Shown here in pieces: positions 3,450-39,324 of a stretch of DNA of 64,000 nucleotides (the stretch's first letter is position 1; every line of letters starts with the position of its first letter). A model generated the notes under the pieces. It was not told the origin of the DNA. It was given only the letters and a program-made list of their open reading frames with translations, and did no database searches. The position numbers were made by a program, and so were the translations under genes. Origin of the DNA: Actinomycetota bacterium (GTDB taxonomy: Bacteria; Actinomycetota; Thermoleophilia; Gaiellales; F1-60-MAGs149); NCBI GenBank assembly GCA_026392355.1, contig JAPLCF010000029.1, positions 1-64,000 of the forward strand, read 5' to 3'.

Positions 3450-3456
3450 GTGCGAG

Positions 3457-3527
3457 AGGCGACGACCAGAATCGAACTGGTGTGGACGGCTTTGCAGGCC
3501 GCTGCCTAGCCACTCGGCCACGTCGCC
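3457..3527 (-). tRNA. tRNA-Cys (anticodon GCA)
   Basis: The minus strand folds as a 71-nt cloverleaf. The acceptor stem pairs GGCGACG (from 3527) with CGTCGCC (3458-3464). The anticodon loop is CTGCAAA, giving GCA, and the T loop is TTCGATT. Position 73 is U, the identity base expected for cysteine. CCA is not encoded. The body is intact, and it lies 14 bases from the duplicated holA end at 3541, the left boundary of the island described here. Confidence 0.95.
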
Positions 3528-3540
3528 GGACCGGGACAGA

Positions 3541-3588
3541 CTACAGCGACTCGGCCAGGGCCCGTTCCAGAACTAGGCTCGGTGGCAT
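3541..3588. repeat. Left 48-bp direct repeat: displaced copy of the holA 3' end (att-like)
   Basis: Read on the minus strand this segment encodes MPPSLVLERALAESL followed by TAG. That is exactly the C-terminus of the intact HolA at 6848-6895. The two 48-bp copies differ at seven bases, all synonymous or within the stop codon. Similarity ends at the ATG codon on the inner side. A direct repeat that reproduces a target gene's 3' end is the usual footprint of a site-specific integrative element. The ATG of the HTH gene (3587) lies in the edge of this repeat. Confidence 0.85.
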
Positions 3589-3862
3589 GCTCAACACTCC
3601 GGGACATCTACCGAACCAACGGGATTCGCGCGCGTCCACTGTCGACACCGACGAACCAAAGGACATCATCGCCTCCGCGATTGCAGAAGCGATGAATAGT
3701 GCTGTTCCGAAGGCTGCGGTCGGTCCGAAAGAGGTCGCGAAGATGCTCGGCGTGTCCCGCTCCTACTTCGACGTGCATATCCTGCCGCGCTTGAAGATCC
3801 GTCGCGCAGGCGGACGTATCCTGATTCCCGTCCGCGAAATCGATCGGTTTCTGCTCTCCTAG
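3587..3862 (+). CDS. Small excisionase-like / MerR-type HTH DNA-binding protein
   Basis: A 91-residue protein beginning at the ATG at 3587, inside the left repeat. The C-terminal half reads GPKEVAKMLGVSRSYFDVHI, then LKIRRAGGRILIPVREIDRFL. This is the winged helix-turn-helix plan of excisionase/AlpA-like proteins (HTH_17): an 'x-EVA-LGVS' recognition helix and a 'RIPVREIDRFL' end. The first 45 residues are polar and probably flexible. Such proteins bend DNA at attachment sites or act as small regulators, which fits its place at the edge of an island. No integrase is visible in the island. It is convergent with the methyltransferase remnant, whose stop abuts at 3863. Confidence 0.72.
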   Translation: MLNTPGHLPNQRDSRASTVDTDEPKDIIASAIAEAMNSAVPKAAVGPKEVAKMLGVSRSYFDVHILPRLKIRRAGGRILIPVREIDRFLLS

Positions 3863-5163
3863 TTATGCCGAGAGGCGCGCGTACTCGTCGAACAATCGTT
3901 CAAGGATGATGCCGTCGGTCGCATCACGCGTTAGTCCGAGCGCATCCAAGACGACAACGTCAAGGGCCGCATGCGCACTCCTCAAGGTCGGTGGCATCAC
4001 TCGTGGGTCGTACATACTCGCAAGCGTCGAATCCGCGCTACGAGCCTCCAGAACGCTCTCTGCGGCGTGCCGAATCGCGTCCGCGCTGGCTTCGGAGATT
4101 TCTGGGACGGGGAACGTGTTGTACGTCGTCTTGATCCCTACGTTGTAATCGCTCTTCAGGCGACCGGAGATTGACCGATTCCACACCATGAAGGCCCGAG
4201 AGCTGAGTAGCCCGAAAGTCACGAGGTCCCCACCGGTAATCACTCCGAGCTTGTTGTTCGCGATTACATCTGGCGAAGGATTTCAATCGCTAGGTACTCG
4301 CGATTCTCACTCGAGATGAGGGGGACAGCGAGAAACTCAGATGAGGGCTGGCGATTCTCGCCGAAGAGCCATGAAGTCTGGGCGAGTTTCCTAGTCGCTT
4401 CTCGCTTTGAAGCAAGCCGCGTTTCACGGATCAGTCGGACGCGTTCAGACAAGATTCGACTTGACTGAATCTCGTCAGGTGTCGCGTCCACGAGCCACAA
4501 GCACCACCGCAGGTCACCGTGAAGGAGCTCTTGGCCCCCAACAATCCGACGGAGAAACTTTGCTGCGATGGGATCGTCACGTCGAATCTCATTGGCGTTC
4601 TCGTCGGTGAGGCTCGAAATGTGCCCGCCGTCATTCGGCATGCTGCCGAACTCCATACGTGGCAACCAAGTCAGAGGCCTCGTGCAAGGTTCAACCAACA
4701 CGTCAGCGGCATCGAGAAGGTATGCATTGATGTTCTTTGCTGCCTGGAGCACCGGGACGCTCGTTGGCTTTGCGTAGTCCCACAAGCGAAGCGTTGGAGG
4801 CTTCGGATTCGCGCTGAAACCAATGATTACCGTATGAACGGCGGCACTCCCGGATGCCTCGTTAGACCACTTGAACGTCCGGTGGGCGAAGTCTATGTGT
4901 ATGCCCAGTGGGGTCAGTTCCCGCCAGATGATTGCTGGCTGAATGCCCTGAGTGATGCTTGACGTCGATACGAACGCTGCGCGCGCTCCGGTGGACGCAA
5001 TGTAGCGACTTGTGACGATGTACCAGTTCGCGACGAAGTCTAGATCCCCGACGCCACGCGCACCTCTCCAAACGCTTTCCGTGTCGTTCTTCTGCTCTGC
5101 GGACTGCCAACGAGCCCCGTTGAATGGCGGGTTTCCCATGACGATCGTCTGCACGTTACGGAA
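3863..5163 (-). pseudogene. Decayed MmeI-type class I DNA methyltransferase (type IIG R-M), N-terminally truncated and frameshifted
   Basis: Two minus-strand reading frames together give the C-terminal half of an MmeI-like enzyme. The first frame (from about 5154 down to 4264) starts right at the catalytic motif IV, QTIVMGNPPFNGARW, and continues through HRTFKW, PRMEFGSMPNDGGHI and SSENREYLAIEIL. An in-frame TAG lies at 5164-5166 just upstream, so the SAM-binding motif I and any nuclease domain are missing. The frame is then lost near 4270-4275. Reading in the next frame gives PDVIANNKLGVITGG, then GRLKSDYN, YNTFPVPE and a family-typical end MYDPRVMPPTLRSAHAALD. One missing base would rejoin them. 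The remnant cannot make a working methylase. Base composition is less G+C-rich than the flanks, consistent with transfer. Confidence 0.82.
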
Positions 5164-5176
5164 CTAGGCGACGAGC

Positions 5177-6697
5177 TTAGCGATGCCCAAGATGGGCATC
5201 TCTCCCAGCACCGCCACCACTACCACCACCACCACCACCACCACCACCGCTGCTACCGCTGCCGCCACTACCCCCATTGCCCGAGTTACTTCCGTTGCCT
5301 CCGTTGCCGCCCGAGTTCGTACCCCAGGCGACGGCCGAGCCGTTAAGGCCGGCGGCGGTCGTGACGAGCTTGGAGCCCTTCTTCAGGCGGATCGTGACGG
5401 AGTAGGGCGCCCCCTTCTTCAACTTCGCCTTGGGAAAGGAAAGGCTCATCGAACCGTCAGCCGCCGAGACGATCGTTGCAATCTTTTTGGACTTGCCCGA
5501 GACGGCCGTCCCGGTCGTGTAAACCGTCGCTGTGCAGAGAGCTTTGCGGCAGGCCGCAAGCGCCTTGACAGAGACCGTCGTCTTGGCACCACTGGTCTTG
5601 ACGGCGGTCTTCGCGGCCACGGTCTTGCGCTTGACCTTGTACGTCGGTGCGCTGAAGGTGATGTCTGGAACGGTAATCAGGAGACCATCAGTGCCTTCGC
5701 TGCCCGCACTCCACACGGTGTAGGTCGGGGCACCATTGGTGCCGGCCGAGCCGGATCGGGTTGCGCTGAAGAACGTAGCGGCGTCCGCCGGAAGCACACC
5801 ATAGATATTGAGCAGCGTCTGCGCGGGCAGGACAGCCTTCATCTGACCGGTCTGAATCGAGCCGTCGGCCCTGAAGTGAGCCGCAGCCATCTGCAGGTCG
5901 AGCACGGGGGCCGATGCCGTCCCCGTTGGATTGAGAAAGCCGAAGATCGCGCCCTGAGTGGCGAAGATCGCGCCGGTCAGCGCCAGGTTGACGGTGTCAT
6001 CGAGACTGAAGACGATGTTGGCCGAGAGCACCTGCAGGGCCGCCCGCTGAATGTCACAGTCGCGGATCGGGGTCGCAGTGCAGCCCTGGCCACCAGTGAA
6101 GTCGCTGACGAACTGGGTGGCAACCGGGCGGAAGCGAATCCGGATCTGCGCATCGGCCGTGCCGAGCCCGGTCGCGCTCCAATAGAGCAGGTCGAGGTTC
6201 GCCCACGACCAGCGCAACGACTGGCCCAGCGTGTTCATGCGTACGGTCATGTCGAAGATCGTCTCGGTGGTGGCAGAGCCGGTCAAATCCGTATTGACGT
6301 TGTCAGTGGCGGGCACGCCGAGCGCGAGCGCAATACGATTTGGAGTCGCATAACAGATGCCCTGCGCCGGCGCCTGCCCAGCCTGACAGAGATTGAGGGG
6401 CGAAATCACCGCCGTCGGGATACCTGCCGTCACGGCCGGCGGGGTCGTCGACCCACCCTCGATGAGCACGGTCTCCACGCCAGCGTTCGTTGCTGTCAGG
6501 CGGGACACGAACGGACGCGCCGCCACCCCTCCTGCCAACGAACCCCAGCCTGCGCCCGTCGTCGAACCAACGGTCACTCCGTCGGTCTGGGCCTGAGTTG
6601 GCGTGGAAACACCCTGCGCCGCGGCGCCTGCTGGGATCAGGGCAAGCTGCGCGACAGCAACGACGACTAAAGCTAGAAAACCATGGGTTTTACGCAT
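5177..6697 (-). CDS. Secreted protein with glycine-rich C-terminal tail, function unknown
   Basis: A 506-residue protein from the ATG at 6695-6697. Residues 1-28 form a signal peptide (MRKTHGFLALVVVAVAQLAL...AAAQG). The middle has alternating small/hydrophobic stretches typical of beta-rich extracellular proteins, with paired cysteines (LCQAG...GICYA; GCTATPIRDC; CRKALC). A lysine-rich segment (KVKRKTVAAK, KAKLKKG, IRLKKGSK) suggests binding to anionic wall polymer or DNA. The tail is almost pure Gly/Ser/Asn from about residue 465, with an unbroken run of Gly codons encoded by a GGT/GGC microsatellite (5213-5280). No known domain is recognised. It lies inside the holA-flanked island, and the methylase remnant collides with its 3' end. 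Confidence 0.7.
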   Translation of the reverse strand: MRKTHGFLALVVVAVAQLALIPAGAAAQGVSTPTQAQTDGVTVGSTTGAGWGSLAGGVAARPFVSRLTATNAGVETVLIEGGSTTPPAVTAGIPTAVISPLNLCQAGQAPAQGICYATPNRIALALGVPATDNVNTDLTGSATTETIFDMTVRMNTLGQSLRWSWANLDLLYWSATGLGTADAQIRIRFRPVATQFVSDFTGGQGCTATPIRDCDIQRAALQVLSANIVFSLDDTVNLALTGAIFATQGAIFGFLNPTGTASAPVLDLQMAAAHFRADGSIQTGQMKAVLPAQTLLNIYGVLPADAATFFSATRSGSAGTNGAPTYTVWSAGSEGTDGLLITVPDITFSAPTYKVKRKTVAAKTAVKTSGAKTTVSVKALAACRKALCTATVYTTGTAVSGKSKKIATIVSAADGSMSLSFPKAKLKKGAPYSVTIRLKKGSKLVTTAAGLNGSAVAWGTNSGGNGGNGSNSGNGGSGGSGSSGGGGGGGGGSGGGAGRDAHLGHR

Positions 6698-6847
6698 CAG
6701 AAGATGGTACAGAAAATAAATGTTCTGTCAACGCTACCGCCGATTTTCTCTGGCTCGAAACAACCGGCAATCTACGGCCCGACCGGGCTGGCCGTTAGCT
6801 GTCTTTGGTCACTGGCTCGACCGCAGCCATGGTGCTCCGTCAGGAGA

Positions 6848-6895
6848 TCAGAGCGACTCGGCCAGAGCCCGTTCCAGCACCAGGCTCGGCGGCAT
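6848..6895. repeat. Right 48-bp direct repeat: holA 3' end (att-like)
   Basis: The functional copy of the repeat, forming the last 15 codons and stop of holA. It matches 3541-3588 at 41 of 48 positions by eye, and every difference keeps the protein sequence. The 3.26 kb between the copies carries the HTH gene, the methyltransferase remnant and the glycine-tailed protein. Confidence 0.85.
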
Positions 6896-7831
6896 CCGCG
6901 ACATGCCCTTCATCGCGGCGTCCGCCTCGTGCATGCAGCTCATCGCGCGGCTCGCATCGGCGGGGGTCCAGTGGCCCACGGCGACGAGCATCTTCTGCGC
7001 GCGGAACGGTGCGACGCCGAGCTGCTTGGCGAGCGCCTCCTTGCTGGGCCGGCCGTCCTCCGCCAGCTCGACTGTGCGGCGGACGAGCTCGACATGGCGC
7101 GTGATCTGCGGCAGCACCCGGTGTGGCTCAACGTCGCCGGCAAAGAGCTTGGTCAGCTCGCGCACCGCACTGCGGCGATCGCGTTGGGTGATCGCATCGA
7201 GCAGCGCCCACGGGGCGTCGTCGTGCCGCGCAGCGACCATCGTCTCGACGATCGTCACGTCGATCTGCTCGCCATTGGCGAACGTCGACAGCTTCTCGAA
7301 TTCGCCGGTGATCTCCTCGGGGTGGTCGCCCACGAGCTCCGTGAAGCGCATCATCGCCTCGGGGTCGAGCTTGACGCCCATGCGCTCGGCCTCTTGGCGC
7401 GCGAAGACTGCGCTCTTCGGAGCTTCGAAGAGCAGGATCGCGTTCTTGCCGCCCGCCTTCGCGACAGCCTTGAACAGCGGATCGTCCTTCGGCCAGACGG
7501 GCTTCCTCGGATCGCTCGGGGCGTCGATCACAATCACGAGCGTCGTCGACGGGCTCGCGTTCTCGACGTAGGCCACGAGGGGATCGAGACGACCGGCCCG
7601 GCGCGGCTTGACCCACGCGTCGCAGCTCTCGACGATCACCAGCCGCTGATCGACGAACAGCCCCTGCTGCTGGCACGCATTGGCAACATCGGCTGGATCG
7701 CAAGCCGAGGCGTCGAAGTGCTCGATCGCGTCGGTACCGAAGCGCTCCTTGAGGCGCTCGAGTGCGCGGCGGACCTTGCCGCGGTCGGTGCCGCCGAGCA
7801 GGTAGACAGGAGCGAGGGCGGTCTCGGACAC
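6848..7831 (-). CDS. holA: DNA polymerase III delta subunit (clamp-loader)
   Basis: A 327-residue protein from a GTG at 7829-7831. HolA opens the beta sliding clamp as part of the clamp loader at the replication fork. The N-terminus APVYLLGGTDRGKVRRALERL matches the delta 'YLL-G-D' strand and helix. IEHFDASACDPADVANAC and RLVIVESCDAWVKP follow the family pattern, and the C-terminal helical collar carries the EITGEFEKLS segment typical of delta subunits. Length is normal. Its last 48 bases are duplicated at 3541-3588, so this 3' end has served as an insertion site. It follows comEC on the same strand (9-base gap), the usual bacterial order comEA-comEC-holA. Confidence 0.92.
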   Translation of the reverse strand: MSETALAPVYLLGGTDRGKVRRALERLKERFGTDAIEHFDASACDPADVANACQQQGLFVDQRLVIVESCDAWVKPRRAGRLDPLVAYVENASPSTTLVIVIDAPSDPRKPVWPKDDPLFKAVAKAGGKNAILLFEAPKSAVFARQEAERMGVKLDPEAMMRFTELVGDHPEEITGEFEKLSTFANGEQIDVTIVETMVAARHDDAPWALLDAITQRDRRSAVRELTKLFAGDVEPHRVLPQITRHVELVRRTVELAEDGRPSKEALAKQLGVAPFRAQKMLVAVGHWTPADASRAMSCMHEADAAMKGMSRMPPSLVLERALAESL

Positions 7832-30517: not shown

Positions 30518-32802
30518 CCGGCGTTCGCCTCTGTCGTCGAGGGGAAGAGCGGTCCACCATCCTGCTGCTGGACCTGCTGGGCGGGATCGACGCCGAGTGC
30601 CGGTCCCGAGTAGACACCAGCCTGCTCGGCGCTCGAGATCTGCCCGATCGTCGCCTCGTTGATGCCGAACGCCTTGGCCATCACCTGACGCACGGCCGGC
30701 GCGGCGGTCACGCCGCCGAATCCGCCCTGCTCGATCACGCACACAACAACGAGCTTCGGATCGTTGGCAGGCGCATAGCCTGCGAACCACGCGAAGTCGC
30801 GCTTGCCGAGTTTCTCTGCGGTGCCGGTCTTGCCAACCACGTCGATCGGAAAGCCCTTGAACGCGGCGTAGGCGGTGCCATTGATGTCCTGCGTGACGCC
30901 CTCGAGGCCCTTACGTACTGCGGCGAGCATGTACGGGTCGACCTGAACACGAGTCCCGGGCTCGGGGGTCAGCTTCTCGCGCAGGGTGCCATCCTGGCCG
31001 TAGACCGAGGCGCCCACGTGCGGCTGCACGAGCGTGCCGCCATTGGCGATGAGTGCGTAGAGGCGCGCAATCTGCAGCGGCGTGACCTCGAGATCACCCT
31101 GGCCAATCGACTGCAGGATCGCATCGCCCGACGTCCATCGATTTTGGACCTTGTCGTCGCCGAAGCGCCGCTTCTTGTACCCGTAGTCCGGCACGTTGCC
31201 CGGCGAATCGGCGCCGATGTCAATGCCGGTCGGCGCGCCGAAACCGAGCCGCTTGGCCCAGAGCGGCTGCGGCTCGAACTGGCCCGATTTGGGCGTGGCG
31301 TCGTAAAGGCGCTTGCCCAGCTCGTAGAAGTACGTATCGCAGGAGGCCGTGAGCGCCTGCATCATGTTCATCGGCTCGTCGACGCCGGATTCGAAGTTGC
31401 GATAGATCTGGCCATCAATCGTCACGTCCGGCGAGCACTGGATCTGCCCATCAGCGCGCACGAGACCAGTGGCACCAGCGGCGAACGCCGTGACGGGCTT
31501 GAAGGTCGAACCTGCCGGGTAGAGACCGTTGAGCGCGCGATTGAGCAGCGGCGACCGCTTGCCTTCGCCCGCGAGCTCGTTCCAGTACTTCTGTCCCTTG
31601 GGCCCGGCGAGGATAGCCGGATCGAAGCCCGGGTTTGATGCCATGGCGCGAATGGCGCCGGTCCGCGGATCCATCGCGATGATGGCGCCACCATCGGCTG
31701 AGGGATGACCATGCGTGCGGGCGTACGTAATCGCCTCGCGCAGTGCGTTCTCGGCAGCGGCTTGCACACCAGAATCGATCGTCAGGCGGATGTTGTCGCC
31801 CGCCTTCGCCGCGCGGGATCGCACGATCGGGCCGACGGGATCACCAAAGGCATCAACACGCCGCTGCAGCGACCCGTTGGTGCCGCGCAGGTAGCGATCG
31901 AAGTACTGCTCGACGCCGCGCTGACCGACAACGTCGCCAGCAGTCGCGTTGCGATACGTCACCTGGTCCTTGACCTGCTCCGACGACACCTCGCCAAGTT
32001 CGCCCCAGAGATGCGGGGCCATCGGGTAGAGGTTGCCGCTCTGCCCGCGAGTGGAGCGGTACGAGCGCGCTGTCCCTTCGACGATACGAACCCCGGGGAA
32101 CTGGCCGGCGCGCTCCTTGAGATAGAAGAGAACGTCGCGATCGACGTCCTTGGCGATCACGATCGAATCGAACGGGGCCTTAATGGCTGCGGTATGGATG
32201 TCGTCCTCGACCTCTGCGACCGAGACGCCGACAATTTGTGCCAGCTCGCGCAGCTGGGGATAGGTCTTCGTGCAGCCTGCCCAGGCGCGCACGGTCTGGC
32301 CACCCTCGAGCTGCTGGTTGATTGCGATGAGGCGGGCCGTGCGACGCTCCTTGGGCAGGGCATTCGCACGTTCGATCGCCTCGCTGATGCGCCGCGCTCG
32401 CTCATCCGAGCTGCGAGCGTCAACCGGCCCCTCGACATCGCGACCACACCCGGTCAGCAGATCAGGAAAGCGCGTCGGATCAATCGCCACGGAGTTCGAT
32501 GGTCGACTCCCGACCAGCACCTTGCCGGTGTTGTCGAGAATCTGCCCGCGCGCGGCCGGAACATCGATGCTGCGAAGACCGTTCGAAATCGCCTGTGCTC
32601 GATAGGTCTGGACGTCGAGCACCTGCAGCGACCAAAGGCGCAGGATCAGGATGACGACGATGACCGCGGCCACGATCGCGAGAATCGCCACGCGCTTGCC
32701 GATGCCGTCACGATCGAACCCCTCGTTGCCTGCTGGCTGCTGCGGCCTCGGGGGCGGCGGTGGATACGCGAGCGTGGGCTCGTCGGTACGCGGCGTACTC
32801 AT
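30514..32802 (-). CDS. mrdA: Penicillin-binding protein 2 (class B transpeptidase)
   Basis: 762 residues. One N-terminal membrane helix (VAILAIVAAVIVVILILRLW) is followed by the PBP dimerisation domain (AARGQILDNTGKVLV). The transpeptidase carries its three motifs: STFK (YPAGSTFKPVTAF) with the nucleophile serine, SCD (ALTASCDTYFYELG) and KTG (DVVGKTGTAEK). It cross-links new peptidoglycan for elongation and partners RodA. The C-terminal 60 residues after the domain are polar with a Q-rich stretch. It overlaps mreD upstream and rodA downstream by ATGA, so the four genes are translationally coupled. Confidence 0.95.
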   Translation of the reverse strand: MSTPRTDEPTLAYPPPPPRPQQPAGNEGFDRDGIGKRVAILAIVAAVIVVILILRLWSLQVLDVQTYRAQAISNGLRSIDVPAARGQILDNTGKVLVGSRPSNSVAIDPTRFPDLLTGCGRDVEGPVDARSSDERARRISEAIERANALPKERRTARLIAINQQLEGGQTVRAWAGCTKTYPQLRELAQIVGVSVAEVEDDIHTAAIKAPFDSIVIAKDVDRDVLFYLKERAGQFPGVRIVEGTARSYRSTRGQSGNLYPMAPHLWGELGEVSSEQVKDQVTYRNATAGDVVGQRGVEQYFDRYLRGTNGSLQRRVDAFGDPVGPIVRSRAAKAGDNIRLTIDSGVQAAAENALREAITYARTHGHPSADGGAIIAMDPRTGAIRAMASNPGFDPAILAGPKGQKYWNELAGEGKRSPLLNRALNGLYPAGSTFKPVTAFAAGATGLVRADGQIQCSPDVTIDGQIYRNFESGVDEPMNMMQALTASCDTYFYELGKRLYDATPKSGQFEPQPLWAKRLGFGAPTGIDIGADSPGNVPDYGYKKRRFGDDKVQNRWTSGDAILQSIGQGDLEVTPLQIARLYALIANGGTLVQPHVGASVYGQDGTLREKLTPEPGTRVQVDPYMLAAVRKGLEGVTQDINGTAYAAFKGFPIDVVGKTGTAEKLGKRDFAWFAGYAPANDPKLVVVCVIEQGGFGGVTAAPAVRQVMAKAFGINEATIGQISSAEQAGVYSGPALGVDPAQQVQQQDGGPLFPSTTEANAG

Positions 32803-39241: not shown

Positions 39242-39260
39242 GCCTGCAGCCTACCGCTGC

Positions 39261-39324
39261 CAATTTGGATCCGGATCCAAATTGTCCGCAGATTGGACAA
39301 TATGGATCCGGATCCACATTGTCC
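39261..39324. repeat. Pair of REP-like palindromes (GGATCCGGATCC family), copy 1
   Basis: Two palindromes separated by 10 bases. Unit one (39261-39284) is a perfect 24-bp palindrome. Unit two (39295-39324) is a 30-bp near-palindrome bounded by GGACA and TGTCC. Both are centred on GGATCCGGATCC. The first unit with flanks (GCC...TTGTCC, 29 bases) is identical to the unit at 56540. The pair lies between two divergent gene starts and so fills their promoter region. No transposase is adjacent, so it looks like a mobilised non-autonomous copy of the element around the RAYT at 56.6 kb. Confidence 0.85.

What the first reader, a model, noticed from the sequence alone, without database searches (positions are those of the whole stretch)
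3541..6895. A 3.3-kb island bracketed by a duplicated holA 3' end
The last 15 codons plus stop of holA (6848-6895) occur again at 3541-3588 as a direct repeat. The seven base differences are all silent (the stop changes TAG/TGA). Between them lie an excisionase-like HTH gene whose ATG sits in the left repeat, a decayed MmeI-type methyltransferase and a secreted Gly-tailed protein, next to tRNA-Cys. This is the footprint of an element that integrates into the 3' end of a replication gene and restores its coding sequence. holA as an attachment site would be unusual. No integrase is left, so it is either a remnant or mobilised in trans.
Basis: partly seen in the sequence, partly recalled or inferred. 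Interest (0 to 1): 0.78.

Follow-up and report, generated by a model that had tools for sequence, protein, structure and literature searches.

The report
Decayed island at holA 3' end
An uncultured actinobacterium carries the worn-down remains of a mobile DNA element that landed at the very end of a replication gene and supplied that gene with a replacement ending, with a foreign gene segment from a related species stitched into it.

Summary
The repeat is real: 48 nt, 41/48 identical, every codon difference silent, next-best 48-mer match in the window 28/48. Six of nine same-genus genomes with a readable locus have holA directly beside tRNA-Cys, i.e. an empty site. The copy beside tRNA-Cys (3541-3588) continues into the same sequence as the nearest empty site, so it is the displaced original end. 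The copy now on holA has a TGA stop where 8 of 8 other genus holA genes have TAG; it is the newcomer. Sister genome G001 has a second insert at the same point, again with a displaced native holA end. The island holds the lowest-GC 1.5 kb of the window: an excisionase-like HTH gene and an MmeI fragment lacking about 500 N-terminal residues. New here: 5146-6832 is a transplanted segment, 91% identical to G010, from the last 11 codons of ispH through the secreted-protein gene to the last 6 codons of glycerate kinase. G000 has only Xer-type tyrosine recombinases and no resolvase-type serine recombinase. Best reading: a composite, integrase-less remnant of an element that integrated at the holA 3' end and restored it. 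The kind is known; the holA target was not found in my paper searches.

The parts
3456..3527 (-). tRNA-Cys (GCA); directly follows holA in empty relatives
3541..3588 (-). displaced native 3' end of holA (left repeat, tRNA-proximal; attR-like), TAG stop; its last 29 nt and what follows up to the tRNA are identical to the empty site of G011
3587..3862 (+). HTH_17 gene, excisionase-like; ATG lies in the left repeat
   Evidence: HTH_17 E 3.3e-5, 24.5 bits, below the 27-bit cut-off; distant relatives in two other genomes lie beside tyrosine integrase genes
3863..5148 (-). MmeI-type methyltransferase/restriction fragment: N-terminal ~500 residues missing, frame broken near 4270
5146..5167 (+). last 6 codons plus TAG of glycerate kinase, captured with the segment; junction to MmeI at about 5146
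5177..6697 (-). secreted-type protein gene with Gly-rich tail, 506 aa; 92% identical at protein level to G010
6795..6830 (-). last 11 codons plus TAA of ispH, captured with the segment
6848..6895 (-). replacement 3' end now attached to holA (right repeat; attL-like), TGA stop
6848..7831 (-). holA (DNA polymerase III delta subunit), frame intact

Best explanation
An integrative element once recombined into the 3' end of holA. It carried its own copy of that end, so holA kept an intact frame: the element-borne end (TGA) is now on holA, and the native end (TAG) was pushed next to tRNA-Cys. The element then lost its integrase and most of its body. What remains is the HTH (excisionase-like) gene, a 5'-truncated and frameshifted MmeI gene, and the two att-like repeats. 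A 1.68-kb segment of another species' ispH-secreted gene-glycerate kinase locus is joined to the truncated MmeI. Shown: the repeat, the silent differences, the empty sites, the foreign cargo, the missing integrase, the origin of the segment, a second occupied site in G001. Inferred: that a site-specific recombinase made the insertion, where the crossover lay, and the order of events. The secreted segment probably came in by an illegitimate joining, before or after transfer; how is not known.
For: Empty holA/tRNA-Cys junctions in 6 of 9 same-genus genomes with a readable locus (G003, G004, G005, G008, G010, G011) and in G013 of the same family. The left copy continues into TAG TCTGTCCCGGTCCGG as in G011, and its last 29 nt are identical to G011 (0 of 29 differences against 4 of 29 for the right copy). 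TAG stop in 8 of 8 other genus holA genes against TGA on the G000 holA. All codon differences silent. HTH and MmeI foreign: HTH in 0 of 12 other genus genomes, MmeI in 6 of 399 class genomes and only G000 in the genus, and the lowest-GC 1.5 kb in the window, 0.58 against a mean of 0.666. G001 has a separate insert with the displaced native end CCGAGGCGCTGTAGTCT beside tRNA-Cys. HTH relatives beside tyrosine integrases in 2 of 6 loci read.
Against: No integrase in the island or, beyond Xer, in the genome. No intact relative of the element at holA anywhere: no viral contig match, no tyrosine integrase within about 3-8 kb downstream of holA in 40 order genomes, using 9 seeds. The crossover cannot be placed: the first 19 nt of the right copy look more native than those of the left copy, the last 29 nt the reverse. 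In G001 the exact repeat is only 14 nt; by length alone this is reached in 2 of 300 shuffles and also elsewhere in GC-rich DNA. G006 has cargo at the same place without any visible repeat. All sequence is from draft assemblies.
Confidence: 0.74

Rival explanations
1. No site-specific recombinase was involved. A piece of DNA from a relative, starting with that relative's holA end, was taken up and joined in by homology at holA on one side and by illegitimate joining on the other, giving the duplicated end.
For: No integrase; the island contains other scraps of chromosomal genes bounded by illegitimate joints; the right copy could simply be another species' holA end.
Against: The duplication is limited to the last 48 nt of the gene and the second copy ends at the native stop; G001 has a second insert with a displaced holA end at the same point; the HTH gene has integrase-linked relatives.
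Confidence: 0.17
2. Chimeric metagenome assembly: pieces of different organisms were joined by the assembler.
For: The named close relatives are uncultured MAGs and G000 is in 50 contigs; the ispH and glycerate kinase scraps look like foreign joints.
Against: Contig of 226 kb; both edges continue into genus-type flanks; G000 has its own ispH directly facing glycerate kinase elsewhere; the inserted gene is 9% diverged from G010, so it is not simply G010 DNA; an analogous insert exists in G001.
Confidence: 0.06
3. Tandem array of two units at one site, [secreted gene] and [HTH+MmeI], with a third att-like core at 5151-5169 between them.
For: The 5151-5169 site matches the left repeat 16 of 19, reached by 4 of 200 shuffles, and lies at the junction.
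Against: The site is the 3' end of glycerate kinase, present in G010 at its native locus, so the likeness is probably chance; the joint to MmeI lies just beyond it.
Confidence: 0.1

Closest known systems
Genomic islands/integrative elements that target protein-coding genes and rebuild them (TIGER/Islander class; PMC12424338 read whole, PMC12884075 passages)
   Same: Direct repeat of the gene's 3' end, restored frame, empty sites in relatives, foreign cargo
   Different: No integrase left; only 3.3 kb; target gene holA not met in my literature searches
Integrase-less derivatives flanked by att sites, such as CIMEs (name recalled, no call)
   Same: att-like repeats flanking cargo with no recombinase
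   Different: No helper element with the same att site was found in this genome, so mobility is unsupported
MmeI-family restriction-modification proteins (Pfam MmeI_Mtase, MmeI_TRD, MmeI_C)
   Same: C-terminal half, 44-45% identical to homologs
   Different: N-terminal ~500 residues lost and frame broken, so very probably not functional

Membership tests
Integrative element in a protein-coding gene | Flanking direct repeat of the target gene's end | tested here: met
Integrative element in a protein-coding gene | Uninterrupted site in relatives | tested here: met
   6 of 9 genus genomes with a readable locus, plus G013
Integrative element in a protein-coding gene | Target gene restored in frame | tested here: met
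   holA 327 aa, no stop inside
Integrative element in a protein-coding gene | Sporadic foreign cargo | tested here: met
Integrative element in a protein-coding gene | Own integrase | tested here: not met
   none in the island; only Xer-type tyrosine recombinases and no PF00239 match in G000. It is filed as a remnant, not as an intact member
Integrative element in a protein-coding gene | Recombination at the repeat shown | not testable with these tools
   needs PCR or an assay
Trans-mobilisable (CIME-like) element | Helper integrase with the same att core available | tested here: not met
   none in G000, 93.7% complete; no second island with the holA-end repeat seen among the 13 genus genomes by pattern

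The most novel reading that the evidence does not exclude
The 3' end of holA beside tRNA-Cys is a repeatedly used, frame-restoring integration hotspot in this uncultured actinobacterial genus. Small integrase-less islands carrying secreted-protein genes arrive there (G000 and G001 carry distantly related ones), moved by an unseen helper whose integrase also acts on look-alike sites such as the glycerate kinase 3' end.
Probability: 0.13. Interest if true: 0.55.

Novelty: new member of a known kind. Interest (0 to 1): 0.36.

Why it matters
It adds holA, a replication gene, as a likely insertion target of frame-restoring elements. It also gives a case where silent differences and a changed stop codon tell which end is original and which was imported. 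The captured ispH-to-glycerate kinase segment records gene transfer between species of one genus through a composite island.

Tried and rejected
A third att core at 5151-5169: looked promising (16/19), but it is the natural 3' end of glycerate kinase.

A mobile secreted-gene cassette: rejected as main reading. The gene sits at the ispH/glycerate kinase locus in G005, G008 and G010, beside glycerate kinase in G009, and a short remnant lies there in G004. It is thus old at that locus in that subclade.

G006's second holA end: not a duplication. Contigs C59 and C32 overlap by about 320 nt. G006 has an alkylsulfatase and a small AOC-like protein gene between holA and tRNA-Cys, no repeat seen.

Viral contigs: 0 matches for the holA-end pattern and no relatives for HTH, holA or the secreted protein. 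Plasmids: none for 3550-5150. Phages: none for HTH.

A wider use of holA: 40 order genomes, about 3-8 kb downstream each, no tyrosine integrase with 9 seeds. Serine recombinases were not sought there. The repeat scan in that call used an approximate stop position and serves as background only.

Papers: four searches gave no holA attachment site. In one search the term was matched as the beginning of longer words in all three papers I opened from it (passages). One search gave nothing. One search listed the TIGER/Islander papers; I read PMC12424338 whole and passages of PMC12884075.

A first blastp of the G001 protein used a wrong frame and was redone. A fold of the joint after the holA stop showed nothing special.

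Not readable at the locus: G002, G007, G009, G012 and G014 (holA cut or absent).

Full report
Observation. The repeat is as described: 48 nt, 41 identical, same 15 residues and a stop in both copies. No other 48-mer in the window comes above 28/48. Five of five codon differences are silent, chance 0.002-0.004 under random change.

Which end is original. Across the genus, 9 of 13 genomes show both holA's end and tRNA-Cys (G006 through two overlapping contigs). In 6 (G003, G004, G005, G008, G010, G011) the two are adjacent, as in G013 of the same family. G000, G001 and G006 are occupied. G015 of the family has a gene with a ParA-like motif there (motif read by eye). The left copy in the window runs into the same sequence as G011's empty site, so it is the native end. 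The copy on holA has TGA where 8 of 8 other genus genes have TAG, so it is the import. Where the crossover lay is open: by comparison with relatives the first 19 nt look more native in the right copy, the last 29 nt in the left copy. This would place it in the shared CTGGAACGGGC, but the numbers are small.

A second case. In G001 the insert between holA and tRNA-Cys ends with CCGAGGCGCTGTAGTCT beside tRNA-Cys, the native end as in empty sister G003. The exact repeat with holA is 14 nt, reached by 2 of 300 shuffles of the insert. Its cargo is a secreted-type protein distantly like the window's (31% over 101 residues, E 1e-7). G006 carries an alkylsulfatase and a small AOC-like protein gene there without a repeat.

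The cargo. The HTH gene has weak HTH_17 support, below the curated cut-off. One search found it in 8 of 61 genomes, G000 included, and in no other genus member; of its 8 places outside G000 I read six, and two lie beside a tyrosine integrase gene. The MmeI piece lacks about 500 N-terminal residues and is frameshifted; relatives at E up to 1e-20 occur in 6 of 399 class genomes, G000 included. This stretch is the lowest-GC 1.5 kb of the window.

The transplanted segment. Window 5146-6832 aligns at 91% to G010 (1571 bp piece, plus 72 bp at 85%), although holA of the two genomes is only 73% alike in DNA. In G005, G008 and G010 the secreted gene lies between ispH and glycerate kinase; in G009 it lies beside glycerate kinase. 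The window segment keeps just the last 11 codons of ispH and the last 6 of glycerate kinase. G000's own ispH directly faces glycerate kinase with nothing between. So this segment is an import from a G010-like species, joined to MmeI at about 5146. That both breaks fall so near gene ends is unexplained.

Recombinases. G000 has two PF00589 proteins; both score as Xer-type, one over the general cut-off and one just under it, neither over the specific XerC/XerD cut-offs. Similar pairs occur in most of the nine genomes searched. There is no PF00239 match. The genome is 93.7% complete, so an integrase in the missing part is not excluded.

Novelty. Islands in protein-coding genes are common: 43.4% of 1.76 million in the TIGER/Islander resource (PMC12424338, whole text), and many rebuild the gene (PMC12884075, passages). 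I found no paper naming holA as such a target, in a library that lacks most subscription journals. The finding is therefore a decayed member of a known kind at a target that may be new, with an odd composite make-up.

Noticed in passing
window 39258-39324 and 56538-56567: Interspersed palindromic repeat (core GGACAATNTGGATCCGGATCCANATTGTCC), 3 matches in the window against 0 expected; many similar copies in G000, G002, G006, G011; strong fold, z -7. MITE- or REP-like.
   Followed up: partly
L113, L115 (G001, G012 ispH loci): Another small secreted-type gene follows ispH in these genomes, so the ispH 3' side is also a variable spot.
   Followed up: no
L104 (G000:C27, match 31378-32430): A second, distant homolog of the secreted protein (35%) in the window's own genome.
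   Followed up: no
L033 289-2924 (G006): Alkylsulfatase and small AOC-like protein genes between holA and tRNA-Cys in G006, with no holA repeat.
   Followed up: partly
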